The translations under genes and the position numbers were made by a program. Of a DNA stretch of 64,000 nt, positions 3,006 through 40,164 are shown piece by piece. The stretch's first letter is position 1; every line of letters begins with the position of its first letter. The notes beneath the pieces are model-generated. The model did not search any database, was not told the origin of the DNA, and saw nothing but the letters and a program-made list of their open reading frames with translations. Source of the DNA: a virus; the IMG/VR virus record IMGVR_UViG_3300044957_000346, positions 1 through 64,000 of that record. One strand, 5' to 3'.

Positions 3006-3233
3006 ATGAAACTAGAACAACTTAAATCATTATCTGAAGATGAACTTGTTTTATTGTGGGGGTGCATTAATTTAGTTGAACCTAAAATTGTGCAATCTTA
3101 TGATTTAGAACCGTCTTTATTTCCATCAATAAACCATAGAAAGTTAATGGATAAGCTTACTAATTGTAAAACTAAAATAAAAGAAGAACACCATGCACTT
3201 TTTGATGGACTTCTTAACAAGTTGCGTATATAA
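3006..3233 (+). CDS. Hypothetical protein (75 aa) upstream of polymerase
   Basis: A small acidic/helical protein starting MKLEQLKSLSEDELVLLW, ending 7 nt before the polymerase start. No family is recognised. The tight spacing suggests co-transcription with the polymerase gene. Confidence 0.55.
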   Translation: MKLEQLKSLSEDELVLLWGCINLVEPKIVQSYDLEPSLFPSINHRKLMDKLTNCKTKIKEEHHALFDGLLNKLRI

Positions 3234-3240
3234 TTTTATA

Positions 3241-5280
3241 ATGTATCAAACTATCTTTATTTCTAAAAAAGACAATACTGTTCATCTATGGGACGATCAA
3301 AAAGGTTACATAAAGTTCCCATATCGACCATATGCTTATCGTAAGCGTACTGGTGGTATGTATCGCAGTATTTATGGAGATGAACTTGAAAAAGTTTATA
3401 AATTTAATCCCAAAGATCCTTCGCTATTTGAAAGTGACGTTCCAGACACCACACGCGTCTTGATCGACGCATATGAAGATAGTGACGAACCTTCTACGGG
3501 TCATAGGTTAGTTTATTACGATATCGAAGTAAGTACTGAAGGTGGGTTTCCAAAGGTTGATGAAGCTGATAAGGAAATTACAGCTATTGCTTTGTACGAT
3601 GCTACAACTGAACAATATACTGCATTTATTTTGGATAAGGATGATCGTCTACAAGAATACAAGAAGGATAATGTAGAAGTACGTAGTTTTACAAATGAAG
3701 AAAGTTTGTTGAGTCATTTTCTAACTAAATGGGAAGAGATACAACCAACTATTGCCACTGGATGGAATATTGATGAATTTGATACTCCTTATTTGTTTAA
3801 TAGAATTAAACGGGTATTTGATGATCGTGAAGCCAAAAGACTTTCTCCCATCAAAGTTTGTTATAGAAACGATTGGAGTAAAAAGATAGTTGTAGCTGGT
3901 ATATCATTTATTGACTACATGGTTTTGTACAAGAAGTGGAATATTAAACAAGAACCTAGTTATGCTTTGGGTGCGATTGGTAAGAAAGTTGTTGGGTTGG
4001 AGAAGATTACTTATAAAGGTAGTCTTGATGATTTGTATAAAGCTGATATCAATCGTTATATTGAATATAATCTCAATGACGTTAAAATTATTGTTGCGTT
4101 GGAAAAAAAGCTTCAGTTTATTGAACAAGTTAGGGCTATATGTCACAAAGGACACGTTCCGTATGATTGTTTTACGATGAGTTCACGTTTCATTGAAGGT
4201 GCAATTCTTATGTATCTTCGTCGTAAAGGACAAGTTGCTAAGAATAAGCCCGTAGATGGACGTGAAGAATATGAAAATCAGATGGAACAAGGCGAAGAAG
4301 GATTTGAAGGTGCTTATGTAAAAGATCCTGTGCCTGGCCGGTATGATTGGGTCTTTGACTTGGATCTTACTTCTATGTATCCAAATATTATTATTAGTTT
4401 GAATATTAGTCCCGAAACGAAAGTGGCAAAGGCTGAGAATTGGGATCCAGAAAAGTTTATAAAGAATGAAGTGGAAACTGTTCAAGTTGGTAGTGCTTCT
4501 TATACAAAAGACGAATTTAAACAGTTGCTTGAAAAATCACAGTATAGTATTGCTAGTAACGGTGTTATGTATAAACAAGATTATCAAGGCGTCATACCTG
4601 AAATTCTAGTCAAATGGTTCGATGAACGAAAAGAACTGCGAAAACAAGCCAAGAAACACGGTGATGCAAAAGAATGGGAAAAGTATGAGTTCTACGATCA
4701 AAGACAAAAAGTACAAAAAGTACTTCTCAATTCAATTTATGGTGTATTGGGTCTACCAATTTTCAGATTTTATGACAAGGATAATGCGAGCGCTGTTACT
4801 TTGACGGGTCAGGATATTATTAAAACTGCTAATAAAGCTATTAATCAGTATTATAAGAGAACTCTCAACGAGACTGAGAATAAAGATTATGTTATATATG
4901 TAGACACAGATTCAGTTGCGTCTGATAGCTTAGTTAAGACCGATTTATATGGTGATATTAAAATTTGTGATTTATTTAATAATCTTTCGATGAATAAAGA
5001 TGTTCAATATATTGAAGATATTCTTGGAAAAAAATTTATTTTTCCAAATAATTTGAAGATGCCTTATTACGATGAAACTGAAAAGATTGTAAAGTTTGGC
5101 AATGTAGATTATATAGAAAAACATAATGTTAAAAAAATTTCGTATAAAATTAAAACCAAAACTGGAAAAAGTATTATCGTTACTGAGGATCATTCGGTTA
5201 TGATTTTAGAAAATGACAAACTTGTTAAAAAACTTACAAAAGATTTAAAGAAAAACGATAAAATAATTTCGATTTGTTGA
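3241..5280 (+). CDS. gp43: DNA polymerase family B, N-terminal part fused to split-intein N-half
   Basis: Residues 1-557 are the 3'-5' exonuclease and most of the palm/fingers of a T4-gp43-like replicative polymerase. Exo I is YYDIEVST (D94, E96), Exo II NIDEFDTPYL (about 176), motif A DLTSMYPNII (about 375), motif B KVLLNSIYGVLG (about 495) and motif C YVDTD (553-557). At the serine of DTDS the extein stops and a 122-residue intein N-half begins (SVASDSLV...), with block B as IIVTEDHSVM, then TGA. MYQT at 3241 is chosen over an in-frame ATG 16 codons earlier because that lies inside the previous gene. The partner half starts at 5327. Confidence 0.92.
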   Translation: MYQTIFISKKDNTVHLWDDQKGYIKFPYRPYAYRKRTGGMYRSIYGDELEKVYKFNPKDPSLFESDVPDTTRVLIDAYEDSDEPSTGHRLVYYDIEVSTEGGFPKVDEADKEITAIALYDATTEQYTAFILDKDDRLQEYKKDNVEVRSFTNEESLLSHFLTKWEEIQPTIATGWNIDEFDTPYLFNRIKRVFDDREAKRLSPIKVCYRNDWSKKIVVAGISFIDYMVLYKKWNIKQEPSYALGAIGKKVVGLEKITYKGSLDDLYKADINRYIEYNLNDVKIIVALEKKLQFIEQVRAICHKGHVPYDCFTMSSRFIEGAILMYLRRKGQVAKNKPVDGREEYENQMEQGEEGFEGAYVKDPVPGRYDWVFDLDLTSMYPNIIISLNISPETKVAKAENWDPEKFIKNEVETVQVGSASYTKDEFKQLLEKSQYSIASNGVMYKQDYQGVIPEILVKWFDERKELRKQAKKHGDAKEWEKYEFYDQRQKVQKVLLNSIYGVLGLPIFRFYDKDNASAVTLTGQDIIKTANKAINQYYKRTLNETENKDYVIYVDTDSVASDSLVKTDLYGDIKICDLFNNLSMNKDVQYIEDILGKKFIFPNNLKMPYYDETEKIVKFGNVDYIEKHNVKKISYKIKTKTGKSIIVTEDHSVMILENDKLVKKLTKDLKKNDKIISIC

Positions 5281-5452
5281 AAGATATCAATAAATTAATA
5301 AATGAAACTTTTGACTATCTCATAAAATGAATTATATTATTGACGAAATTGAATCCGTAGAACCTTTAGGTGAAGTTCAAGAAGATTTTTACGACGTTGG
5401 TATGCGAGACACACCACATACATTTTTTGCTAATGATATTTTGGTTCATAAT
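4912..5452 (+). other. Split intein in DNA polymerase motif C
   Basis: The N-half is 4912-5277 (122 aa, first residue Ser) and the C-half 5327-5452 (42 aa, ending FFANDILVHN) with +1 Ser. A 49-nt break between coding parts contains stops in the joining frame and no endonuclease gene. Block A, block B (TEDHS) and the terminal His-Asn are all present, so the pair looks splicing-competent. Rejoined exteins would read YVDTD-SCFVSALP, a normal polymerase motif C. Confidence 0.88.
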
Positions 5453-6310
5453 AGTTGTTTTGTTAGCGCACTGCCTATTATCGAGAAAACGATGCCTGAT
5501 ATTGATGTAAACAATGAGAAACAAATGACCAAAGCTATTTTGGAAGTTTGTACAGAAGCTCAAAATCATGTAAATGATACATTCAATATTATGGCAAAGA
5601 GAATGTTTAATGTGGTCAAACATCGTTTTGATGCAAAACAAGAGGTTATTGCCAAGACCAGTTTTTGGCTGGCTAAGAAACGATATGCTCAGTTTATCAT
5701 TAATACGGGTGGTATTGAATGTGATGAACTTGAAGTCAAGGGTATTGACGTTGTTAGAACATCTTTCCCACTTAGATTCCGTAAGTTTATGGAACAATTC
5801 TTACAAGATATTCTTCGTAAAGTTGATAAAGAAAAGATTGATGCTAATATTTTGAAGTTGGTAGAAGATTTGCCTACGTTTAATGTGATTGAGATTGCAA
5901 AGAACACTAGTGTAAAGTTTAAGAGTCAAGATGGTAAGAAAGAATATGCTCCCAAGAGTCGTAGTCCGTTTAAGTATGTGTTAGGCACACCCGCACAAGC
6001 TAAAGCAGCTATATTCTATAATGATTTACTTGAACAGTTTGGTTTGACTAGGAATACACCTAAGATTCTTCATGGCCAAAAGATTAAGTGGGTATATCTT
6101 AAACAGAATGAGTATGGTGCTGAAGGTATTGCTTTGAAAGCGGATGGTACAGATCCGGATGAAATTCTTGAGTTCATTGAGAAGTATGTAGATAGAACTG
6201 CTATGTACGAACAAGAACTTAAAGGTAAATTAAAAGATTTCTATGATGTATTGAATTGGGAATATCCATCTGTAAATGATGCAAAAGCAAACGAGTTTTT
6301 TAGTTTTTAA
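5327..6310 (+). CDS. gp43: Split-intein C-half fused to DNA polymerase C-terminal part
   Basis: Residues 1-42 are the intein C-half (block G ANDILVHN). Residue 43 onward (SCFVSALPI) is the palm remainder and thumb, about 285 aa, giving an 842-aa mature polymerase (T4 gp43 is 898). The C-terminus DAKANEFFSF is a hydrophobic EFF tail like the sliding-clamp-binding peptide at the end of gp43 proteins. The ATG follows the N-part stop by 46 nt with no obvious Shine-Dalgarno. The 3' end lies within a 243-bp direct repeat found again at 7985. Confidence 0.9.
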   Translation: MNYIIDEIESVEPLGEVQEDFYDVGMRDTPHTFFANDILVHNSCFVSALPIIEKTMPDIDVNNEKQMTKAILEVCTEAQNHVNDTFNIMAKRMFNVVKHRFDAKQEVIAKTSFWLAKKRYAQFIINTGGIECDELEVKGIDVVRTSFPLRFRKFMEQFLQDILRKVDKEKIDANILKLVEDLPTFNVIEIAKNTSVKFKSQDGKKEYAPKSRSPFKYVLGTPAQAKAAIFYNDLLEQFGLTRNTPKILHGQKIKWVYLKQNEYGAEGIALKADGTDPDEILEFIEKYVDRTAMYEQELKGKLKDFYDVLNWEYPSVNDAKANEFFSF

Positions 6311-6498
6311 TTAAAATTAAAGCTGTGTTTTAATAATATATATATTAATGTTATGATTACAAAAAAAATAGAAGATTTAATTGTTATACAAAATAAAGAC
6401 ATTTCATTTGGAAATGTTGTTACATATTATATTCAATCCTCAAAAATTTAATAGCAAACTAAGCGATTTCTACTCTATATTGAAGTGGGATTATCCAA
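6256..6498 (+). repeat. 243-bp perfect direct repeat, copy A
   Basis: By eye identical to 7985-8227. It covers the last codons of the polymerase, a 32-codon ORF and the start of a second polymerase-tail relic. The copies are 1,729 bp apart and flank a DNA methyltransferase and a truncated clamp gene. Recombination between them would delete both genes. Confidence 0.9.
6353..6451 (+). CDS. Small ORF (32 aa) inside direct repeat, copy A
   Basis: Starts MITKKIEDLIVIQNKD and ends QSSKI. It has no recognised family and no clear ribosome-binding site. It occurs unchanged in the second repeat copy. It overlaps the upstream extension of the tail-relic frame, so it may be non-coding. Confidence 0.25.
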   Translation: MITKKIEDLIVIQNKDISFGNVVTYYIQSSKI

Positions 6499-7472: not shown

Positions 7473-8039
7473 ATGAAAAAACAAATCTTAGACACATTCA
7501 TTAAAAAATATTCACTTAACGGAATCATCAACTCAGTAAAGTGGGCAGTTGACTCCGACAAGAAAACCTTAAAGACAAATGCGATAACCGAAGAAAAGAA
7601 CGTGTTGGTTTCAGTTGAGGTGGCAAACTTTGATTCGATTGGTGAAACCTGTGAATTGGGTGTCTATGAAACAAGTCGATTGTCAAAAATGTTAGCGGTG
7701 TTGGATGACACCGCAGAACTCGGACTTAATAAAAAGGACGACAAAATCACCTCGGTTAGTTTTTCTGACGATGCCACTGATGCACAATTCATTACCGCCG
7801 ATTTGTCGGTCATTCCTGCTGCTCCGAATTTAAAGAAACTCCCTGAGTTTGGCACAGAAATTGAACTTGATAAGGATTTTGTGGACCGGTTTATCAAGGC
7901 CAAGAGTGCGTTGCCAGAAGTTGACACTTTCACTCTTCTTATGAACAAGAAGAAGAAACTTTTGGATTTCTATAATGTGTTGAGTTGGGAATATCCATCT
8001 GTAAATGATGCAAAAGCAAACGAGTTTTTTAGTTTTTAA
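7473..8039 (+). CDS. Chimera: truncated sliding clamp joined to polymerase C-terminal tail
   Basis: Residues 1 to about 163 are homologous to the full clamp at 12354 (MKKQ..L..FI.KYSLNG, then TADLSVIP and KKLP). At NKKKKLLDFYNVL the frame passes into the polymerase tail and ends ANEFFSF inside direct-repeat copy B. The last third of the clamp fold is missing, so it cannot form a normal ring protomer. It might be an inactive by-product, a dominant partner in mixed rings, or an assembly chimera. The polymerase-like and clamp-like parts are both clear; a function for the fusion is speculation. Confidence 0.75.
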   Translation: MKKQILDTFIKKYSLNGIINSVKWAVDSDKKTLKTNAITEEKNVLVSVEVANFDSIGETCELGVYETSRLSKMLAVLDDTAELGLNKKDDKITSVSFSDDATDAQFITADLSVIPAAPNLKKLPEFGTEIELDKDFVDRFIKAKSALPEVDTFTLLMNKKKKLLDFYNVLSWEYPSVNDAKANEFFSF

Positions 8040-8227
8040 TTAAAATTAAAGCTGTGTTTTAATAATATATATATTAATGTTATGATTACAAAAAAAATAG
8101 AAGATTTAATTGTTATACAAAATAAAGACATTTCATTTGGAAATGTTGTTACATATTATATTCAATCCTCAAAAATTTAATAGCAAACTAAGCGATTTCT
8201 ACTCTATATTGAAGTGGGATTATCCAA
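7985..8227 (+). repeat. 243-bp perfect direct repeat, copy B
   Basis: Second copy of 6256-6498 at a constant offset of 1,729 bp. Divergence starts sharply at both ends: the upstream side joins truncated clamp sequence, and the downstream side continues into a different version of the EFF tail. Confidence 0.9.
8082..8180 (+). CDS. Small ORF (32 aa) inside direct repeat, copy B
   Basis: Identical copy of the ORF at 6353. Coding status is doubtful for the same reasons. Confidence 0.25.
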   Translation: MITKKIEDLIVIQNKDISFGNVVTYYIQSSKI

Positions 8228-12353: not shown

Positions 12354-13091
12354 ATGAAAAAACAAACATTAAATTCATTTATTGACAAATATTCACTCAA
12401 CGGAACCATTGAAAGTGTAAAATGGGTAGTTGACAACAACGATAAACAAATCAAGACATCATCAATTAGTGATGACAAAAATGTTTTGAGCTTCGTAGTA
12501 ATCAAAGATACCGCCGGTCTTGAAAATGCTGAGTTGGGTGTTAATGATACTACCAAGCTTAAGAAGCTATTGAATGTTCTTGGCGATGAAGTAAACATCA
12601 CATTTAATAAACGAGATGACAAGGTTGTATCGTTGTCTCTGAGTACGGAAAGCACCGATGTACAGTATGTTACTGCGGATTTGAGTGTCATTCCAAATGT
12701 ACCAGCTTTAAAGAAACTTCCACCATTTAACTTAGAAATTCCTCTAACTAAAGAATTTGTAAGTACATTTGTAAAAGCCAAGGGTGCTTTGAGTGATGTT
12801 GACACTCTTACATTCCTTAAAGATAAGAAAGACAAGATCAAGTTGGTTATCGGATATAGTAGCGTCAATAGTAATCGTATCAATATTGATGTAAAACCAT
12901 CGGAAGGCAAAGATACCTTGGGTAAGACACTACATTTTAGTGCTAAATATCTAAAAGAGATTCTTACCAGTAACAGTGATTGTGAAAATGCTGTACTTAA
13001 GGTTAGTGATGCTGGATTGGCACATGTAGAGTTCAATAACGATACATTCAACAGCAATTATTATCTAGTTGAAATTAAGAACATTGATTAA
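12354..13091 (+). CDS. gp45: DNA polymerase sliding clamp (gp45-like)
   Basis: 245 aa, close to the 228 of T4 gp45. Assignment rests on position (polymerase, clamp, clamp loader), length, the repeated beta-alpha-beta pattern, and homology with the truncated paralogue at 7473 (shared KYSLNG, TADLSVIP, KKLP). It should form a trimeric ring around DNA that tethers the polymerase and late-transcription factors. It has its own promoter and is followed after 6 nt by the first clamp-loader piece. Confidence 0.8.
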   Translation: MKKQTLNSFIDKYSLNGTIESVKWVVDNNDKQIKTSSISDDKNVLSFVVIKDTAGLENAELGVNDTTKLKKLLNVLGDEVNITFNKRDDKVVSLSLSTESTDVQYVTADLSVIPNVPALKKLPPFNLEIPLTKEFVSTFVKAKGALSDVDTLTFLKDKKDKIKLVIGYSSVNSNRINIDVKPSEGKDTLGKTLHFSAKYLKEILTSNSDCENAVLKVSDAGLAHVEFNNDTFNSNYYLVEIKNID

Positions 13092-13097
13092 TCATAT

Positions 13098-13370
13098 ATG
13101 AGTTTCTTTAGCGAAGAAAGTTCCTCTTCCGTCAAAAATCATTCTTTGTGGTCGGAAAAATATCGTCCGGATGTATTGGATGGTTATATCTGTGATAGCA
13201 ATCTAAAAAGCATTATTACAGATTTTATCAATCGTAAAGACATTCCGCATATATTGTTACATGGTAATGCTGGTACTGGAAAATGTTTAGATTATGATGA
13301 ATTTATAGATGTAGAAATGGAAGTAACAAACGATGAATATGAAATTTTAAAAAAATATGAAATAAATTGA
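13098..13370 (+). CDS. gp44: Clamp loader ATPase piece 1 plus 28-aa split-intein N-half
   Basis: Residues 1-62 are the start of a gp44-like AAA+ clamp loader (LWSEKYRPDVLDGYI, HILLHGNAGTGK). Directly after the Walker A lysine comes an intein N-half, CLDYDEFIDVEMEVT to the stop: only 28 residues, containing block A only. Block B is found in the C-half at 14389. This division is typical of atypically split inteins with very short N-halves. Joining to the middle piece restores GTGK-TTLAK. Confidence 0.9.
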   Translation: MSFFSEESSSSVKNHSLWSEKYRPDVLDGYICDSNLKSIITDFINRKDIPHILLHGNAGTGKCLDYDEFIDVEMEVTNDEYEILKKYEIN

Positions 13371-13386
13371 AATCGTGATACTGTGT

Positions 13387-13430
13387 ATAGTTATGCAGGA
13401 TTTGGACTTTTCCGATACCGGCATAACTAT
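13387..13430. repeat. Perfect 10-bp inverted repeat in intein gap
   Basis: ATAGTTATGC (13387-13396) and GCATAACTAT (13421-13430) enclose 24 nt, immediately before the homing-endonuclease start at 13436. It would form a strong stem in RNA and could block a ribosome-binding region or be a recognition site. There is no U-tract. Confidence 0.5.
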
Positions 13431-13435
13431 AAATT

Positions 13436-14405
13436 ATGAAAATAATATATAAACAATATAAAATTTTATCGGATGTTAAAAATTATAAAGAATTAGAAAA
13501 TTTTATTATATCAAATCATTTGTTGAAAAATTTCAAATCGTTCGATGTAAAATTTATTAATATTATTAATGTGGAAATTAACAAGACCGATAAAGTCTCT
13601 TTTAAAATATTTAAAAACAATTTTATTAAAAAATGGGTTAATTGTGGTACTTTTTTAAAAACTGAATATTGGACTCAGAGAGGTTGGACAATGGATGAAG
13701 CCATTGAAAATATTAAAAAATCCAATCTAATTATTCAAAAAAATCAAATTTAAAAAATAAACCGTGAGCACTTAATACTAGAATTGAATTTTGGTTAAAA
13801 AAAGGATATTCACAATCGGAAGCGGTTGAAAAATTGAGAGAAAGACAGTCGTGTTTTTCCAGAAATAAATTAATAAAGAAGTATGGCGAAGAAATTGGAA
13901 ACAGAATAGTTGATGAACGAAATAAAAAATGGGTTGATTCTTTGAAAAAGAATAATGATTGGGATGCATTATCAATTAAAAAAGGAAATAATGGTTTGAA
14001 TAAATATAAAAGTCTAAATGATATGATCTCAGTATATGGAGAATTGGAAGGTAGAATAATATTTTCGTTAAGATATTGGGGGAAAAAAATTTCAACCGTC
14101 GAAGAATTTAATGAAATAGACTTATTTAAAAAAAGAGAACGAACATCATTATTTTACAATAAAAATTACAGATTTAAAATATTATCCAAACAAAATTTCA
14201 GTTGTGGGGAATGTGGGGAATGTGGGATTTCAAATAAAGAACGTTTATTTCATCTACATCATATAGATTTCGATAAAAAAATGATAAAATTGACAACTTG
14301 ATCTTTTTATGTCATAATTGTCATGCAAAAACTACAAATGCGAAGTTAGAAAAAAGAAAATGCTTAATAGAAAAGTTTAAAAAATTGAATGAAAAATACA
14401 CTTAA
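13436..14405 (+). pseudogene. HNH homing endonuclease, frame-broken, in clamp-loader intein gap
   Basis: The intact N-part (13436-13753) ends with a YWTQRGWTMDEAIENI unit. After a frame change and a TGA where Trp is expected, the reading continues with FWLKKGYSQSEAVEKL, a second copy of the unit. An HNH zinc-ribbon core follows: SCGECGECG, LHHIDFD, then, after another frame change at an A7 run near 14280, LCHNCHAKT. The last frame stops at 14405, overlapping the intein C-half ATG. This is the expected homing gene of a fractured intein locus. Breaks at homopolymers may be real decay or sequencing errors. Confidence 0.75.
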
Positions 14406-15258
14406 AAAGTTTCGTATTCCAATTGGGGAACTGTTCACATTTTTCAATTTAAATGGAAATGATTATGACATTCCAAAGAAAATTTCCAGATTATTAAAAA
14501 TAAAAACAGCTGACGGAAAATATACCGACATATTATATTTAATCAAAAAGTTTGGTAAAATTTATAATTATAAATTGGAAAATGGTATTGAAATAACTTG
14601 TGATGAAAACCATTTAGTTAAATCAAACGGAAAATTTACTTTTATAAAAGACTGTACTTTGGTCGATACTATAAATGGGTCGTATAAAATTATAAATTCA
14701 ACCTATCTAAAAGATGGTGATGTATATGATATGTCATTAAACGATCCTCATGAATATATTACTTCATCTGGAATTATTTGTCATAATACAACCTTAGCTA
14801 AGATTATTGTAAAAAATATTCCATGTGATTGTGTTTATATTAATGCTAGTGATACTAATGGTATTGAGATGGTAAGAACTAAGATTAAGGGATTTGCTGG
14901 ATCCGCAGGTTTCCAACCATTAAAAGTGATTATATTAGATGAATGTTTGGATGAAAATACTTTTGTTTATGTATTGAGAAAAGGTATTGAAACCAAAGTA
15001 AAAATAAAAGATGTCAATGAGAATGAAGATTTGATAAAATCTTTCAATATTAAACAATCTAAAATAGAATGGAGAACATTTTATTTGTGGGACAAAGGTG
15101 AACAAGAATGTGTGAGAATTGAATTGGAAAACGGAGAATCCGTAATTTGTACATTAGATCATAAATGGTATGTTTTAAACGATAAAAACGAACCAATAAA
15201 AGTAAAAACAAAAGAATTAGTAGAAGGTAAATATGATTGCATTTTGTCTCCAGAATAA
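14389..15258 (+). CDS. gp44: Clamp loader piece 2: intein-1 C-half, 52-aa extein, intein-2 N-half
   Basis: Residues 1-133 are the intein-1 C-half, 134-185 clamp-loader sequence (TTLAKIIVKN to KVIILDE, the Walker B motif), and 186-289 an intein-2 N-half (CLDENTFVYV, block B SVICTLDHKWY). The protein therefore carries splicing elements at both ends and only 52 residues of enzyme in the middle. It should be ligated on both sides by two separate trans-splicing events. Confidence 0.9.
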   Translation: MKNTLKKFRIPIGELFTFFNLNGNDYDIPKKISRLLKIKTADGKYTDILYLIKKFGKIYNYKLENGIEITCDENHLVKSNGKFTFIKDCTLVDTINGSYKIINSTYLKDGDVYDMSLNDPHEYITSSGIICHNTTLAKIIVKNIPCDCVYINASDTNGIEMVRTKIKGFAGSAGFQPLKVIILDECLDENTFVYVLRKGIETKVKIKDVNENEDLIKSFNIKQSKIEWRTFYLWDKGEQECVRIELENGESVICTLDHKWYVLNDKNEPIKVKTKELVEGKYDCILSPE

Positions 15259-15323
15259 AATTATTTGTCTCTTGACTCACAAATTTCATATATGTTATAT
15301 AATAAAAAAGTAATTTAATTTAT

Positions 15324-15908
15324 ATGAAATTGAACGATATAATGATTTTTGATATAAAAAGTGAAACGCCAATAATATTTGATTTAGGTGGACATAAGGG
15401 AGATTGGGTTCAGATAGCTTTAACTAAGTATCCGAAATCGATCATTTATGTATTTGAACCCATAAAACTATATTATGATTTAATTTGTGATCGATTTAAA
15501 TCTATAAATAATGTTAAAGTTTTTAACTTTGCTATTTCGGACAAAACATATGAAACTGAGATTTCTATAGAAGGAGATCGATCATCTATTCATTTTGATT
15601 CAAAAACAATAGAGAAAGAGTGTATTAAAGTAAAGAATATCAGAGAATTTTTATTTGAAGAACAAATATTTTTTGTGGATTTAATAAAAATTAACATAGA
15701 GGGTGAAGAGTATAATTTATTAGAATACTTGATGAACACCCCTGAATTATGCGTTTTTCAAAACTATGTAGTTCAGTTTCATAGAAACATTGAAAATCAT
15801 ATTTCTAGACGAAATTTTATATTAAACAACATTAAAAAATTCTACGATATAATATTTTCTGTAGATTTTGTTTGGGAAGGTTGGTCTATTAAAAAAATTA
15901 AAAAATAA
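15324..15908 (+). CDS. FkbM-family methyltransferase inside split-intein gap
   Basis: 194 aa. FDLGGHKGDWV is SAM motif I, VFEPIKLYY motif II, and VDLIKINIEGEEYNLLEYL the FkbM hallmark (D-x-x-K-x-D/N-x-E-G-x-E). These enzymes O-methylate sugars in surface polysaccharides. It stands between the two halves of an intein, a place normally used by homing endonucleases. Its 3' end abuts an endonuclease frame that lacks a start. It probably arrived by insertion from a glycan island, truncating the endonuclease. Confidence 0.85.
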   Translation: MKLNDIMIFDIKSETPIIFDLGGHKGDWVQIALTKYPKSIIYVFEPIKLYYDLICDRFKSINNVKVFNFAISDKTYETEISIEGDRSSIHFDSKTIEKECIKVKNIREFLFEEQIFFVDLIKINIEGEEYNLLEYLMNTPELCVFQNYVVQFHRNIENHISRRNFILNNIKKFYDIIFSVDFVWEGWSIKKIKK

Positions 15909-16937
15909 ATGCTAAGTCAACTAGAGAAAAATTAAAAAATGCAGCAATAAATCAAGGATTGGGAAAATATAAAATATATGAACGAGAAAATTATTGTGAT
16001 ACGGAAATTAAAAGTTTAGTAGAAAAGTATAAAAATTTGCCAAAATATACCGATATTTTTAATTCAACTATAACATATAAATCGGAACATATTTGGAGAA
16101 ACTCTATAATAAGAAAAATGGATATTTCTTCGTGTAATTTATTTTTCTATCTTTTAGAAGATAATATTCCCGATTGTAAGTATTGTAATATTAAATTATC
16201 AATTGATTCATATTCATATGGTGGGAAGGGTTTTTCATTTAAAGGATTTAAAAAATATTGTCTAATTTGTACAAATAATCAAAACTATAAAAGATATAAA
16301 CATTCTAAAGAATCAGTTTTAAAATTTAAAATTTCAAAATTAAAATGGACAAATTCAAAATCAGGAAAGTTATTTTATAAAAAACTCGGAAAACAAAATA
16401 GTATAGGTTTAAAAAAAATATTTTCAAACAGATCAGGGGCGTAATCAAATTGAAAAAACATCATTAAAACAATCAAAAATTTTAAAAGAAAAAATATTAA
16501 AGGGAGAATTTCATCCAAATATAACAAACAGTTGGACAAATTGGAATGCTATAATTACATTAGAAAATAAAATATATAAGTTTAGAAGTTCATGGGAAGC
16601 TTCATTTTTTGTTAGTAACACTCATTGTAAATATGAGTATATTAGGATACCATATATTGATAAACATGACAAAACTAAAACTTATATTGCGGATTTTTAT
16701 GATGAAAAAAACAAAATTTTATATGAACTAAAACCTAGATCCGTATTTAAAAAAGAAGTAGTAAAAATAAATCAAGTTATAGAATATTGCATAAAAAATG
16801 AAATAAAATTTATATGGTTGAATGAAAACAACATTCTAAATCATATTGACAAAAAAGATTTCTCGGATGATAATCTAAATCAATACAATAAAATGTTAGA
16901 GGGTATTTATGGTAAAAATAAAAATAAAATCAATTAA
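15902..16937 (+). pseudogene. Vsr-like homing endonuclease relic, 5' truncated and frameshifted
   Basis: The open frame begins without ATG at the end of the FkbM gene (NAKSTREKL...). It includes a zinc-like pair CKYC...CLIC, and shifts frame at an A8 run near 16415. The second part holds FRSSWEASFF, then YIADFYDEK and LYELKPRS, the D...E-x-K core of Vsr/EDxHD nucleases. It ends at 16937, overlapping the C-half gene by 29 nt. Nucleases of this type are known from fractured split-intein loci in environmental phage sequences. It is probably inactive as read. Confidence 0.75.
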
Positions 16938-17643
16938 AAAATTGGAAGAAAAAATGCATGTATATGATTTATCAGTGGATGGAAATCATAACTTTTTCAT
17001 AGGAAACAAACCAACTTTAACATCAAATTGTGATTTTTTAACGACTGAAGCTCAGGCATCTCTTCGTAATTTGATGGAAACATATAGTCAAACTACGAGG
17101 TTTATTTTGACTTGTAATTATGTTGAGAAGATCATCAAGCCTCTTATTAGTCGTTGTCAAGTGTTTGATATTGAACCGCCTACTCCAAAGAATGTAGCGA
17201 TTCATATCAAGAATATCTTGGATAAAGAGAATATTAAGTACGAATTGCCATCTCTTAAGAACGTATTGGATGATTTTTATCCAGATGTACGGAAGATTAT
17301 CAACTTCGTACAACAGAATAGCACTAGTGGTACATTGAAGATTGTCAAAAATCAAAATGCAAGTTTTGATCTTAAAAACAAAATTATTGAACTTCTGAAG
17401 GGTTCAAAAACAAACTCAAGTGCGTTTAATGATATTCGACAACTTGTAAATGACGCGGGTGCAAAAGTATATGACGAACTGTATAGTGAATTGTATGTCA
17501 GAACAAAAGAATATGCTCCTAATAAAGAAACTTCAGTAATTATTGATATAGCAGAACATACTTATCAAAGTAGCATGGTTGTGGATAAAGAAATTACGTT
17601 CATGGCTTGTATTGCTAAATTGATAAAAACAATCGGTAAATGA
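16909..17643 (+). CDS. gp44: Clamp loader piece 3: intein-2 C-half plus C-terminal extein
   Basis: Residues 1-40 are the intein C-half. From C41 (CDFLTTEAQASLRNLMETYS) to 244 is the rest of the AAA+ domain with sensor 1 FILTCNY, the Arg finger region SRCQVF, and the collar domain. Total spliced clamp loader is 62+52+204=318 aa, against 319 in T4 gp44. GAGGG lies 7 nt before the ATG as a possible ribosome-binding site. It overlaps the following glycosyltransferase by ATGA. Confidence 0.9.
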   Translation: MVKIKIKSIKKLEEKMHVYDLSVDGNHNFFIGNKPTLTSNCDFLTTEAQASLRNLMETYSQTTRFILTCNYVEKIIKPLISRCQVFDIEPPTPKNVAIHIKNILDKENIKYELPSLKNVLDDFYPDVRKIINFVQQNSTSGTLKIVKNQNASFDLKNKIIELLKGSKTNSSAFNDIRQLVNDAGAKVYDELYSELYVRTKEYAPNKETSVIIDIAEHTYQSSMVVDKEITFMACIAKLIKTIGK

Positions 17644-31604: not shown

Positions 31605-33425
31605 ATGTCGGATTTAAAAAATTTAGATAAATTACCGGGTGGTGTAGGCGATGGTGTAGATGCCTCAAAATTCAATCCTATACAACTTTCTTTAGGAATA
31701 CAAATTGAAATGGAGCATACAAATGATCCTGAAATAGCACAAGAAATCGCGTGCGATCATTTATATGAAGATCCCGCTTATTATACAAAATTGGTAAAAG
31801 CTGGTTTAGCCAAAGAATTTCAACCGTCACACAACAGCGGTCTCGGTGATCCTGATTATTCAGCTAACGATGCTTCTAGAGTAGGCATCGACGGTTTAAA
31901 GAAAGGAAATATGGGTGGTAAAATTGGTAATACATCTAATGGTCAAGTTGACGGAAGAAATAGTGAACCTATTGTAAATAAAACCGTTGATATTGAATTA
32001 GACGAAAAGAAAGGTAAAAAGAAACCAAAACCAACCAATCCAACTTTATGGGCAAGAGCTAAAGCTGCTGCAAGAGCCAAATTTGATGTATATCCGTGCG
32101 TACCACTTGATAGTAAAGCTCTTACAAAAAATGGATGGAAAACATATGAAGAATTAACTATAGGCGAATTGATATTGACTTATAATATTAATAAAGATGA
32201 ATTGGAATGGAAACCAATATTAAATCTTAATTTTTTTGAAAATGCAGAGTTAGTAAGAATGTATAAACCTACAGGTTTTTCAATAAAGTGTACACCTAAT
32301 CATAAGTGGGTTGTACAAAGAGGAAATGATTATTCTATTGTAGAATTGATAGAAACAAAAGATTTACCTAAAAGAGCTAGAATAATAGTATGTGCAGAGT
32401 TAAAAAATAATGACAAAATATTATTAGAAAATTTTTCTAAAACCGATAATTGGACTGAAAATATCATTAATATGAGTTCTGAACAAAGAAAGTCGTTTTT
32501 AGCAGCATCTATAATATATGATGGGTGGGATAAGGGATCTTCTTCAAAAATAGAAGGTCGTCATACTTTTGGATTTGTACAAAAAAATTCAGATCATTTG
32601 GATGCTGGTTTATTGGCAGCGTATTTAAGTGGATATTATGTATCTGTATGTGATAGAGAATCTATAACGTCTGCAAATTTTATAAGAAACAAAAAATTTC
32701 ATTGTGTTCAAAATATAAAGTTTGAGAAAACAGAAAATGAGGATGTTTGGTGTCCGACTACCGAAAATAATACCTGGATAATGTACCAAAACGGATTAAT
32801 TACAATTACAGGCAATTCGGCTTATGCTAATGGATGGGCCGCTAAGTGGTATAAAAAACACGGTGGTGGCTGGAGAATGAGTGAAGATGCCGAATCTAGT
32901 CCAGCCGCAGCTTATGATGGACCATTTCCATCACAAGTATCTCCAGATGGACAAGGCACTTATGGAAGTGGATATGATTTTGTAGGTTTTGCGGAAAATA
33001 AAGGTACAATTATGAAAAAAGAACAACTTAAAGAAGCTATCAAAAAATTAGTAAAACAAACATTGATTGAACAAGAACAAGACGATGTTGATGTAGCAGC
33101 CGAAGATGAAACTGTTACTATTACATTGGACAAACAACTTGCACAAAAATTGCATGATTTATTAATGACTCAACTTCAACCAGAAACTCCAGCAGGTCCA
33201 GAAGATGCAAACGATGTTGTGACTGCAGAAGATGACAAAGAAACAGTTGCTGCAAATATGAGTAGCGACCGACTACCACCAGGAGCTCTTCATAAACAAC
33301 TTGGAGTTCCATCTGGAGAAAAAATACCAGCTGGTAAATTAGCAGATGCTGCTAATAAAGGCGGTAAACTTGGTAAGAGAGACAGATTAGCTCAAACATT
33401 GAGTAAGATTGCCAAGAAAAAGTAA
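31605..33425 (+). CDS. Virion-type protein interrupted by an intein
   Basis: 606 aa before splicing. Residues 1-164 have a DUF5661-like helix (GIQIEMEHTNDPE) and a basic KKGKKKPKP stretch. 165-404 are an intein. 405-606 begin SAYANGWAAKWYKKHGGGWR and end in an acidic, then basic tail. Spliced length is 366 aa. The joined KFDVYP-SAYANG segment is a conserved-looking motif, which explains the intein site. The acidic helical C-part (ALHKQLG, KGGKLGKRDRLAQTL) suggests a head scaffold or core-like role (inference). Confidence 0.7.
   Translation: MSDLKNLDKLPGGVGDGVDASKFNPIQLSLGIQIEMEHTNDPEIAQEIACDHLYEDPAYYTKLVKAGLAKEFQPSHNSGLGDPDYSANDASRVGIDGLKKGNMGGKIGNTSNGQVDGRNSEPIVNKTVDIELDEKKGKKKPKPTNPTLWARAKAAARAKFDVYPCVPLDSKALTKNGWKTYEELTIGELILTYNINKDELEWKPILNLNFFENAELVRMYKPTGFSIKCTPNHKWVVQRGNDYSIVELIETKDLPKRARIIVCAELKNNDKILLENFSKTDNWTENIINMSSEQRKSFLAASIIYDGWDKGSSSKIEGRHTFGFVQKNSDHLDAGLLAAYLSGYYVSVCDRESITSANFIRNKKFHCVQNIKFEKTENEDVWCPTTENNTWIMYQNGLITITGNSAYANGWAAKWYKKHGGGWRMSEDAESSPAAAYDGPFPSQVSPDGQGTYGSGYDFVGFAENKGTIMKKEQLKEAIKKLVKQTLIEQEQDDVDVAAEDETVTITLDKQLAQKLHDLLMTQLQPETPAGPEDANDVVTAEDDKETVAANMSSDRLPPGALHKQLGVPSGEKIPAGKLADAANKGGKLGKRDRLAQTLSKIAKKK
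32097..32816 (+). other. Contiguous intein (240 aa) with decayed LAGLIDADG-like domain
   Basis: Cys1 starts CVPLDSKALTKNGW; block B is SIKCTPNHKWVV; the end is TWIMYQNGLITITGN with +1 Ser. The middle holds FLAASIIYDGWDKGSS, which looks like one degenerate LAGLIDADG helix with a D-x-x-D end, and a second weak helix (LDAGLLAAYLSGY). Splicing may still work, but the terminal Gly-Asn replaces His-Asn. Confidence 0.8.
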
Positions 33426-37725: not shown

Positions 37726-40164
37726 TTATCTTATTCCTTTTCTTTTTTTGTAATCGTCTAACGCGGCATTAAGTGCTTCCTGTGCTAACACACTACAGTG
37801 AATTTTAACTGGTGGAAGTCCACCCAATGCTTCTACTATGTTATCATTGCTAAAATTTTTTTCAAGATCTTCTATTGTTCTACCCTTAATAAGTTCGGTT
37901 GCCACACTAGAAGCAGCTATAGCACTGCCACAGTTATGTGACATTGCTCTTAATACAAAGAAACAGTTTGAACCTTCATTTAATTCTAAATCATAAACAA
38001 TATAATTGTCATTAGATTTTTCCAATCCTCTTAATTCATTAACATGTGTAATTTCTTTTTTTGATTTTAATGCAATTCCATTATGAATAAATCTTTGAAT
38101 ATCATTAATGCAAGTATCCAATTCATTTTTTTCAACAAACATCACATCAAAACCAGCAGATGAATAATCTTTTCTTTTTTGTATCATCCATCCTTGATTT
38201 TCACGATTTTGCATAAAATGAGGTAAATTTTTAGTATAAACTTCAATTACTTTTTTTTGACCATTTACTTTAAAATCAGGATTAAATCTTTTTCCATCTG
38301 GTGTGTTTATCCAAAACTTATAATCTCCTACGTATCTTAAATCTAGATTTTCATTTACAAATTTATTAATAAACTTTTTTTCTAATAAAGTTGGTCTTTT
38401 CCACTGATCTTTTTTAATTCCCTCTTGCCAGTTTTTAACATATTCTGGATTTTTCCACATTTTTTTACAAGAAATGCTTGTTTTAAAACTAGAAATTTCA
38501 AGATTTTTTCTTTTGTATTTTTTTTGATTCTGAGGCAATTCTTTTTGTTTCATCAATCCAAGATTATTTCTTTTTGAAATTTTTTTTGAATTGATATCTT
38601 TTAACCATTGTTGTTTTCTAACATTATTAATTGAACGGAGTTCTCGTTCTGTCATTTCCAATACTTCCATTCCAATTTCAAAATTTTCTGTTACTAATGG
38701 TCTATTATCTGCGCCCCACCAAACATGGTCTTTAGTGCAAATTATTTTTTTCCTTAATCCAAAATCTAATACACATAAATCATCGGAAGATACTTCTTTT
38801 TTAACAATATTTTTAACAGTATTTTTAACTACAGAGCTTCCATTCCATGTCCAAATTTGATCACCTATTTTTAAGTTTTTAATGGATGTATATCCGTTTG
38901 GAGTAGCAATTGGACTATTACCACCTAAGCATCCAAATGTCTTGAATCGAGCATCAATAACTTTATTGGTTTGTTCATCGATTCTGAGACTAATCTTCAT
39001 TATATCACCACAATTTTTAACGACTATTCCTTCTTCAACATTCAGGGTGATACGTGATAAAACAATATAATTATTATTTTCCTCAACTTGTAATGTATAT
39101 GTTTGAATTTCTCCAATATATTCTCGTTTGATTATATTGTGATTATAATGTTTGCATTCATCAAAAAACTCAGTCCATGATGGAAATCTTGTTGATAAAG
39201 ACTGTGGAATTTTATTTTGTTTGGCATAAGATCGCCAAAGATTAGCGGTCAACTTACCGTGTTGTTTATATAAATTATTTCCTATTTTGAATAAATCTTC
39301 ATCCGAATATCCTAACCACTTCGGATTTTTATTTCTCGGCTTAGAAGCGAATTTATATTTCCATTCATCGGACGTTTTATGATAACAATTATTATTTCCT
39401 TTTTGTCTTAGAGATATTAACTTCCTCTGTTCTTCGGTGGCCAATTTTGAAAAATGATTTGCCAATTCACTTTTGTCATCAAACTTGTTAATGTTTTCCA
39501 ATAAAATGTCTTTATTAATACATACATCAAATGTTTTTGGTCTATCCCAATTTGGGTTTGTCAACTTAGTATGATCTGATTTTGGTAATCCTTGCAAATT
39601 ACTAATACAGTTATTTTGTTTGTTTTCATCTATGTGATGTATATCATATCCTATAGTATTATGGTCAGGATTGTGAAATTTATAAATTTCAATGTGTTCT
39701 TTCCTATGTTTGGTTTTTCTAATTTCCCAATATCCATTTTTGATTATTTTTCGTTTGAATGGATAAATAGAATCATCACTTGTTAATAATTTATTTTCAA
39801 CATATTGTTTTTTAGGACGAGTGAGAAATTTATGATCTTCCGTACATGTTATTGTACCGCCATCATTTAATGTCAATTTATATACTTTTTTGACACCAGA
39901 TACAACTCCTATAGCATTTTTTATTTCAAATAAATTTGTTTTAGTATTAAAGCTCCAAACAGGGGTTATTTTGTTTACTAAATTTTTAATAGGAGTATGT
40001 AAATTACCATCCGCTGTTGCTATTAAAGTATCACCATCAAAACATGCTGCAGCCCCTACTTCACCTATAGCGTTTGCTTCTTTTATGTCACCCATATTTC
40101 TGGGATTCATAAAATGATCCATTACAGTTTGATTATATAGAGTATAAGATTCATTCATACCCAT
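37726..40164 (-). CDS. iscU: IscU/NifU-type Fe-S scaffold interrupted by two inteins
   Basis: 812 aa before splicing. Exteins are residues 1-40 (YNQTVMDHFMNPRNMGDI...VGAAA), 385-411 (CGDIMKISLRIDE...FKTFG) and 745-812 (CGSAIAASSVATELIKG...PPVKIHCSVLAQEAL). Joined, they make a 135-aa IscU with all three cluster cysteines (AACGD, GCGSA, HCS). Both inteins are inserted immediately before catalytic cysteines, which serve as their +1 residues. IscU builds [2Fe-2S]/[4Fe-4S] clusters. No IscS or IscA gene is seen here, so host sulfur donors would be needed. Confidence 0.92.
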   Translation of the reverse strand: MGMNESYTLYNQTVMDHFMNPRNMGDIKEANAIGEVGAAACFDGDTLIATADGNLHTPIKNLVNKITPVWSFNTKTNLFEIKNAIGVVSGVKKVYKLTLNDGGTITCTEDHKFLTRPKKQYVENKLLTSDDSIYPFKRKIIKNGYWEIRKTKHRKEHIEIYKFHNPDHNTIGYDIHHIDENKQNNCISNLQGLPKSDHTKLTNPNWDRPKTFDVCINKDILLENINKFDDKSELANHFSKLATEEQRKLISLRQKGNNNCYHKTSDEWKYKFASKPRNKNPKWLGYSDEDLFKIGNNLYKQHGKLTANLWRSYAKQNKIPQSLSTRFPSWTEFFDECKHYNHNIIKREYIGEIQTYTLQVEENNNYIVLSRITLNVEEGIVVKNCGDIMKISLRIDEQTNKVIDARFKTFGCLGGNSPIATPNGYTSIKNLKIGDQIWTWNGSSVVKNTVKNIVKKEVSSDDLCVLDFGLRKKIICTKDHVWWGADNRPLVTENFEIGMEVLEMTERELRSINNVRKQQWLKDINSKKISKRNNLGLMKQKELPQNQKKYKRKNLEISSFKTSISCKKMWKNPEYVKNWQEGIKKDQWKRPTLLEKKFINKFVNENLDLRYVGDYKFWINTPDGKRFNPDFKVNGQKKVIEVYTKNLPHFMQNRENQGWMIQKRKDYSSAGFDVMFVEKNELDTCINDIQRFIHNGIALKSKKEITHVNELRGLEKSNDNYIVYDLELNEGSNCFFVLRAMSHNCGSAIAASSVATELIKGRTIEDLEKNFSNDNIVEALGGLPPVKIHCSVLAQEALNAALDDYKKRKGIR
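37933..38931 (-). other. IscU intein 2 (333 aa) with Vsr-like nuclease domain
   Basis: Starts CLGGNSPIATPNGY; block B is IICTKDHVWW; ends FFVLRAMSHN with +1 Cys. The central domain has LEKKFINKFVNE, FNPDFKVNGQKKVIEVY (D...E-x-Y) and FDVMFVEKNEL, resembling PD-(D/E)XK/Vsr-type nucleases rather than the usual LAGLIDADG. All splicing blocks look intact. Confidence 0.88.
39013..40044 (-). other. IscU intein 1 (344 aa) with HNH nuclease domain
   Basis: Starts CFDGDTLIATADG; block B is TITCTEDHKFL; ends VEEGIVVKN with +1 Cys. IHHIDENKQNNCISNLQGL is an HNH motif of the HHID...N...NL type. A later segment, KWLGYSDEDLFK, looks like a DNA-binding module. The penultimate residue is Lys instead of His, a tolerated variant in some inteins. 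Confidence 0.88.

What the first reader, a model, noticed from the sequence alone, without database searches (positions are those of the whole stretch)
13098..17643. Clamp loader (gp44) encoded as three ORFs joined by two split inteins
Seen: three consecutive ORFs carry extein pieces of 62, 52 and 204 aa. The breaks fall inside Walker A (GTGK | TTLAK) and Walker B (LDE | CDFLT), each flanked by intein blocks A/B and terminal His-Asn or Ser-Asn. The total of 318 aa equals the T4 gp44 length (319). Established: fractured split-intein genes with intervening homing endonucleases are known in environmental phage sequences for other proteins. Inference: an essential AAA+ enzyme built from three polypeptides by two sequential trans-splicing events, with a middle piece carrying intein halves at both ends. 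I know of no described clamp loader arranged this way.
Basis: partly seen in the sequence, partly recalled or inferred. Interest (0 to 1): 0.95.

Follow-up and report, generated by a model that had tools for sequence, protein, structure and literature searches.

The report
Clamp loader built from three polypeptides
In this uncultured virus the motor that loads the DNA replication clamp is encoded as three separate gene pieces, apparently stitched into one protein by two different split inteins (one of them cut at an unusual place), and the same design recurs in two other viruses, so it looks like a real, selected arrangement rather than a broken gene.

Summary
Three ORFs carry 62, 52 and 204 aa of a T4 gp44-type clamp loader. 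Joined, they give 318 aa that align gap-free, end to end, with an intact 318-aa gp44 in the nearest relative (87%). Breaks are at Walker A (GTGK|TT) and Walker B (LDE|CD). Intein 2 is canonically split (104/40 aa). Related contigs show every state: no intein, site 1 only, site 2 only, contiguous inteins at either site, and two further three-piece genes (L014, L090). Catalytic residues are conserved: Cys1 and Cys+1 in 23/23 distinct site-2 loci, whereas intein-free gp44 has Cys at +1 in 1/76. Intein halves show third-codon-position excess. An HNH-like and a PD-(D/E)xK-like endonuclease lie between the pieces, both broken by frameshifts here. The same phage also splits its DNA polymerase by a third intein. 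No other gp44 exists in the 74-kb record, but the record is partial. This is a new variant of the known 'fractured gene' kind; two sequential natural trans-splicings on one protein were not found in the literature held. Splicing itself is inferred, not shown.

The parts
13098..13283 (+). gp44 extein piece 1 (62 aa, ends in Walker A ...GTGK)
   Evidence: PHROG 168 E 9.9e-13; end-to-end alignment of joined exteins with intact gp44
13284..13370 (+). IntN of intein 1, 28 aa (CLDYDEFIDVEMEVTNDEYEILKKYEIN) plus stop; atypically short
   Evidence: 74% identical to IntN in L014 and L087, with the break at the same place; contiguous form in L132 and L135
13386..13431 (+). stable RNA hairpin directly upstream of the first gap ORF
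   Evidence: -21.3 kcal/mol, z -4.4 against shuffles; function unknown
13436..14388 (+). HNH-type homing endonuclease gene in gap 1, broken into three frames
   Evidence: three-frame translation shows the His/Cys motif HLHHIDFDKK...CHNCHAKT across a frameshift; weak PHROG HNH hits E 0.01
14389..14787 (+). IntC of intein 1, 133 aa, ends ICHN
   Evidence: TIGR01443 17.4 bits over cut-off 15.6; PDB intein hit E 2.4e-4; 47-51% identical to IntC1 of L014, L087 and L090
14788..14943 (+). gp44 extein piece 2 (52 aa, TTLAK...VIILDE)
   Evidence: PHROG 168 E 1.6e-10 for the ORF
14944..15258 (+). IntN of intein 2, 104 aa plus stop; begins CLDENT
   Evidence: TIGR01445 E 5.8e-11; Pfam PF14890 E 2.8e-12; alignment A4
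15324..15908 (+). FkbM-family methyltransferase ORF, a passenger in gap 2
   Evidence: TIGR01444 E 9.6e-15; not seen in gap 2 of relatives
15920..16938 (+). homing endonuclease gene of gap 2 (PD-(D/E)xK type), broken by one frameshift in an A-run near 16410; its end overlaps the start of IntC2
   Evidence: tblastn of intact L013 endonuclease E 6e-53, two frames; the L013 protein hits Pfam TnsA-like N, E 6.4e-6
16909..17028 (+). IntC of intein 2, 40 aa, ends LTSN
   Evidence: TIGR01443 E 1.2e-5 over cut-off; 70-75% identical to IntC2 of L014 and L090
17029..17643 (+). gp44 extein piece 3 (204 aa, CDFLT...) plus stop
   Evidence: PHROG 168 E 4.4e-36
12354..13091 (+). sliding-clamp-like gene (gp45-type) immediately upstream, same order as in L004
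   Evidence: synteny with L004; PHROG 12062, no named function
3193..5280 (+). DNA polymerase B N-piece with 122-aa IntN (begins SVASDS) - related split-intein gene of the same replisome
   Evidence: PHROG 262 E 5e-134; the joined polymerase aligns gap-free over 842 aa to intact PolB of L004, 89%
5327..6310 (+). DNA polymerase B C-piece with 42-aa IntC (ends LVHN, +1 Ser)
   Evidence: PHROG 1918 and 262

Best explanation
The gp44 clamp-loader ATPase gene of this T4-like phage has been invaded at two sites by inteins, and both inteins have become naturally split. Three polypeptides are translated: E1(62)-IntN1(28), IntC1(133)-E2(52)-IntN2(104) and IntC2(40)-E3(204). IntN1 binds IntC1 and IntN2 binds IntC2; each pair folds into one HINT domain and performs class-1 splicing (Cys1 N-S acyl shift; transfer to Thr+1 at site 1 and Cys+1 at site 2; Asn cyclisation), giving a traceless 318-aa gp44. 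No single piece holds both Walker A and Walker B complete, so ATPase activity should depend on both ligations. The middle piece has the IntC-extein-IntN order that can cyclise if its own halves match; here the halves are from different inteins split at different places, which should prevent that. Homing endonucleases between the pieces (intact at site 2 in relatives, frame-broken here) probably spread the elements. Shown: gene layout, exact junctions, recurrence, conserved catalytic residues, codon-level constraint. Inferred: expression, pairing, splicing, anti-cyclisation role, homing.
For: Collinear PHROG 168 hits; the joined exteins align gap-free to intact gp44 at 87-62%. The same three-ORF layout is in L014 and L090. 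Site 1 only, split: L087, L133; site 1 contiguous: L132, L135. Site 2 only, split with open endonuclease: L013, L016 and others; contiguous: L109, L110. Cys1 in 23/23, Cys+1 in 23/23, terminal His-Asn in 22/23 distinct site-2 loci, whereas intein-free gp44 has F/S/A at that residue in 75 of 76. Third-position excess in IN1, IC1, IN2 and IC2. Model of a contiguous site-2 intein: pLDDT 81, top PDB matches all inteins or their HINT kin, best E 2e-9. The site-1 model, though weak, best matches the VidaL intein. No other gp44 in the record; a 188-kb relative has only a split full-length gp44.
Against: No splicing was observed and no expression data exist. The record is a linear 74-kb fragment, so a second intact gp44 elsewhere is not excluded. 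Both endonucleases are frame-broken here, so mobility is probably lost in this genome. Intein 2 has Ser-Asn instead of the relatives' His-Asn (also in L088). Intein 1 is recognised only by its C-terminal motif and by a two-sequence profile, and its model is low-confidence (pLDDT 59).
Confidence: 0.88

Rival explanations
1. Genes in pieces without ligation: the three polypeptides assemble non-covalently into an active clamp loader, as for split NrdA of phage Aeh1 or split gene 43 of phage 25, and the intein halves are inert remnants.
For: Such non-covalent split phage enzymes are described (PMC2988022).
Against: Intein catalytic residues are invariant and the halves are under purifying selection across three phages; the break falls inside the P-loop between Lys and Thr; contiguous inteins at both sites in relatives require splicing.
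Confidence: 0.05
2. Decaying gene: two contiguous inteins have been broken by frameshifts or stops, or by assembly errors, and this gp44 is a pseudogene rescued by another copy outside the fragment.
For: The endonuclease parts are frame-broken and the record is partial.
Against: The break points are conserved: IntN1 ends ..KYEI and IntC1 starts M.. in several phages; stop and start flank the canonical split point of intein 2; all exteins are open and 87% identical to an intact relative; the same three-piece layout occurs in L014 and L090; a 188-kb contig has only split full-length gp44.
Confidence: 0.05
3. RNA-level joining (group I or II intron, or translational bypass) removes the intervening segments.
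For: T4-like phages carry group I introns with endonucleases (general knowledge).
Against: No Rfam intron match in the window; the segments flanking each gap code for intein motifs with complete N- and C-terminal catalytic residues, which no RNA mechanism needs.
Confidence: 0.01

Closest known systems
Fractured genes (Dassa et al. 2009, doi 10.1093/nar/gkp095; not readable here, described from memory and citations)
   Same: A phage DNA-synthesis gene broken by a split intein with a free-standing homing endonuclease between the halves
   Different: Two split inteins in one gene, so three polypeptides; one atypical and one canonical split; a clamp loader, as far as the held literature shows
Atypically split inteins: AceL-TerL (25-aa IntN), GOS-TerL, VidaL, PolB16 OarG (15/168 aa)
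   Same: Short IntN, long IntC; the weak model of intein 1 best matches VidaL
   Different: Host gene gp44, site Walker A K|T; 28/133 aa; used together with a canonical split intein on the same protein
Canonical split inteins: Npu/Ssp DnaE, gp41-1, NrdJ-1
   Same: About 100/40 split; HINT fold; sequence hits to NpuDnaE and gp41-1; Npu DnaE also ends Ser-Asn (own knowledge)
   Different: Insertion site LDE|CD in the Walker B motif of gp44
Archaeal RFC small-subunit inteins (sites a-c, PMC2814812)
   Same: RFC site a is Lys51|Thr52 in Walker A, equivalent to site 1; homologous host protein
   Different: Not reported there as split; site 2 does not match b (Ala76|Ser77) or c (Ser138|Cys139)
Split PolB intein of Pseudomonas jumbo phage MIJ3 (PMC6892783)
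   Same: Split intein with HNH gene in DNA polymerase B; resembles the split PolB of this window
   Different: One split intein, polymerase only
Engineered tandem protein trans-splicing (PMC12707363)
   Same: Three segments joined by two orthogonal split inteins
   Different: Artificial; here a natural counterpart

Membership tests
T4 gp44-type clamp loader large subunit | Full-length homology over about 315 aa with Walker A, Walker B and SRC motifs | tested here: met
   Joined 318 aa hits T4-type gp44 structures (3u5z E 1e-28, 8unf) and RFC small subunits (E 2e-41); intact gp44 relatives gap-free
Intein 2: class-1 intein, canonical split | Cys/Ser1, block B His, C-terminal Asn, +1 Cys/Ser/Thr, HINT fold | tested here: met
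   Cys1, DHK block B, SN|C; TIGR01445/TIGR01443 hits; HINT model from the contiguous relative L109
Intein 1: class-1 intein, atypical split | Cys1, block B His, HN|T, HINT fold | tested here: met
   Cys1 on ORF 1; CDENH and ICHN|T on ORF 2; TIGR01443 over cut-off; profile hit E 2.4e-4; contiguous homologues L132 and L135. The fold model alone is low-confidence
Naturally split intein | Separate ORFs with trans-splicing activity | tested here: inconclusive
   Separate ORFs with conserved break points met; splicing activity cannot be tested here
Fractured gene | Free-standing homing endonuclease between split-intein halves | tested here: met
   Endonuclease remnants in both gaps of the window; open endonuclease ORFs at site 2 in L013, L016 and others
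Vsr-like homing endonuclease family (gap 2 ORF) | Vsr-type catalytic motif and fold | tested here: inconclusive
   Pfam gives TnsA-like N, E 6.4e-6 for L013; consistent with PD-(D/E)xK, no Vsr hit
Archaeal RFC-a intein allele | Intein at Lys|Thr of Walker A and sequence relationship to RFC inteins | tested here: inconclusive
   Same site (PMC2814812); relationship of the intein sequences not tested

The most novel reading that the evidence does not exclude
A natural two-step, three-polypeptide protein assembly line: an atypical and a canonical split intein are combined because their different cut points make the middle piece (IntC1-E2-IntN2) unable to cyclise, and together with the split DNA polymerase (a third intein pair) they make assembly of the phage replisome core depend on three orthogonal trans-splicing reactions, possibly a timing control on replication.
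Probability: 0.2. Interest if true: 0.85.

Novelty: new variant of a known kind. Interest (0 to 1): 0.7.

Why it matters
If the splicing works, this is a natural example of one essential enzyme made from three polypeptides by two protein trans-splicing reactions, a scheme met here otherwise only as engineering (PMC12707363). The set of related loci (no intein, contiguous, split with endonuclease, split with endonuclease lost) lets the origin of split inteins be read at two sites of one gene. It also gives new atypical and canonical split intein pairs that occur side by side, so are presumably orthogonal, useful for multi-segment protein ligation.

Tried and rejected
A scan of viral contigs with IntC1 alone found nothing; a two-sequence alignment was needed. 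The bacterial/archaeal genome scan with E2+IntN2 gave one hit, L134, a chance match in a V-ATPase gene. Rfam found no introns or other RNA families. The structure model of intein 1 stayed at pLDDT 59 and is used only as weak support. The second AAA+ hits (E about 1e-15) in relatives are partial matches to other ATPases, not second gp44 genes. Literature searches for a split clamp loader, gp44 plus intein, or natural three-piece splicing found no precedent in the held library, but Dassa 2009 is not held, so gp44 among its enzyme types cannot be ruled out. L120, whose Walker B reads CEE, and the weak hits L125-L127 were not pursued.
Full report
WHAT IS THERE. The window is part of a 74,428-base linear IMG/VR virus record. 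Three + strand ORFs at 13098-13370, 14389-15258 and 16909-17643 hit PHROG 168, clamp loader of DNA polymerase, collinearly. Cutting at Cys/His-Asn and Cys/Ser-Asn gives extein pieces of 62, 52 and 204 aa. Joined, they make 318 aa that align without a gap from residue 1 to 318 with single-ORF gp44 genes of related viral contigs: L004 87%, L005 75%, L006 74%, L007 73%, L009 62%. Such agreement fixes both junctions to the residue: GTGK|TTLAK in Walker A and ILDE|CDFLT in Walker B. By sequence the joined protein also matches solved RFC small subunits and T4-type gp44. In L004 the order PolB, gp45-like clamp, gp44 is the same and all three genes are intact and intein-free.

THE TWO INTEINS. Intein 2 is a canonical split intein: IntN 104 aa on ORF 2 (TIGR01445 E 6e-11; Pfam PF14890 E 3e-12) and IntC 40 aa on ORF 3 (TIGR01443 E 1e-5). 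The joined intein matches NpuDnaE and gp41-1 structures by sequence, and an AlphaFold model of a contiguous relative (L109) has pLDDT 81 with inteins as top PDB matches. Intein 1 is atypically split: IntN has only 28 aa on ORF 1 and IntC 133 aa on ORF 2. Its IntC carries a TIGR01443 motif over cut-off, and a two-sequence profile finds PDB inteins at E 2e-4. Its model is poor (pLDDT 59); for what it is worth, the best match is the VidaL intein. Single-ORF homologues with the same intein unsplit, in L132 and in the 484-kb uncultured phage LR756508 (L135), show that the two halves belong to one intein.

RECURRENCE. Scans of viral contigs give a full series in gp44. Neither site occupied: L004-L012 and most others. 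Site 1 only, split: L085-L087 (three near-identical contigs) and L133; site 1 only, contiguous: L132, L135. Site 2 only, split with an open endonuclease ORF: L013, L016 and many others; split without one: L089, L114; contiguous: L109, L110. Both sites split, three ORFs: the window, L014 and L090. The three-piece genes share only 44-58% of their largest extein, and the break points are conserved (IntN1 ending ..YEI in several loci, IntC1 starting just before the RIPVGEL stretch). This makes a one-off frameshift or assembly error very unlikely as the cause of the split.

FUNCTIONAL SIGNATURES. In 23 distinct site-2 loci Cys1 and Cys+1 are invariant, and the last two intein residues are His-Asn in 22 and Ser-Asn in one; the window itself has Ser-Asn. 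In 76 intein-free gp44 sequences the residue at +1 is Phe 55, Ser 13, Ala 7, Cys 1, while the site-1 +1 residue is Thr in all 76. So a Cys beside the Walker B glutamate marks intein-bearing alleles, as expected if it is needed as nucleophile. Between window, L014 and L090 every half (IN1, IC1, IN2, IC2) differs most at third codon positions in all comparisons but one tie, which argues for selection on the protein. Site-2 inteins are more alike than their exteins in 276 of 300 pairs (mean 0.65 against 0.52; for example 0.84 against 0.50 for L016 and L014), consistent with horizontal spread, though slower evolution of inteins would give the same sign.

BETWEEN THE PIECES. Gap 1 (1018 nt) holds an HNH-like endonuclease gene broken into three frames. 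Gap 2 (1650 nt) holds a FkbM-type methyltransferase ORF and an endonuclease gene broken once in an A-run; the intact form in L013 and L016 overlaps the start of IntC2 and has a PD-(D/E)xK-like hit. In L014 and L090 these genes are mostly or wholly gone. A strong hairpin (13386-13431, z -4.4) lies directly before the gap-1 ORF.

SECOND COPY AND NEIGHBOURS. No other gp44 is in the record. Relatives have one full gp44 each; a 188-kb relative contig has only a split full-length gp44. The same window splits DNA polymerase B by a third intein (122/42 aa, Ser1 and Ser+1): the joined polymerase aligns gap-free over 842 aa with intact PolB of L004 at 89%. A split PolB intein is known from jumbo phage MIJ3 (PMC6892783).

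HOW IT MOST LIKELY WORKS. Three polypeptides associate through two cognate intein pairs and are ligated into one gp44. The middle piece has the IntC-extein-IntN order used to make cyclic proteins; because IntC1 and IntN2 come from inteins cut at different places, self-cyclisation is unlikely (inference). Walker A and Walker B are spread over different pieces, so activity should require both joints (inference). Splicing itself has not been shown.

KNOWN OR NEW. Fractured genes with split inteins and endonucleases are known (Dassa 2009, cited in PMC7090010 and PMC6892783; not readable here). Atypical splits are known (PMC10189870, PMC11766414). Walker A intein insertion is known as archaeal RFC site a (PMC2814812); site 2 is not among RFC sites a-c. 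What I could not find described is a naturally twice-split gene joined from three polypeptides, or a split clamp loader. I therefore rate it a new variant of a known kind.

Noticed in passing
3193-5280 and 5327-6310: DNA polymerase B is also split by an intein (122-aa IntN beginning Ser, 42-aa IntC ending HN, +1 Ser), with only 46 nt between the halves; the joined 842 aa match intact PolB of L004 gap-free at 89%.
   Followed up: yes
6236-6498 and 7965-8227: A 263-nt direct repeat (3 mismatches) duplicates the polymerase tail and encloses a DNA-methyltransferase-like ORF and a truncated sliding-clamp paralogue fused to the polymerase tail copy (ORF 7473-8039).
   Followed up: partly
37726-40164 (-): A NifU/IscU-type Fe-S scaffold gene carries two contiguous inteins, the first with an HNH domain.
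   Followed up: partly
31605-33425: A further contiguous intein-like insertion (CVPLDSKALT...ITGNS) in a protein without a PHROG match.
   Followed up: no
15324-15908: A FkbM methyltransferase ORF sits between the halves of split intein 2; it was not seen in the same gap of relatives.
   Followed up: partly
13386-13431: Strong RNA hairpin (z -4.4) between the IntN1 stop and the endonuclease ORF, possibly a control element of the endonuclease gene.
   Followed up: partly
L014 3440-4033: An intein C-half followed by what reads like an IMP dehydrogenase C-terminal part just upstream of the three-piece gp44, suggesting another split gene in that phage.
   Followed up: no
L120 4845-5507: A gp44-like protein with a site-2 split intein whose Walker B reads CEE instead of LDE; the IntN and IntC ORFs overlap.
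   Followed up: no
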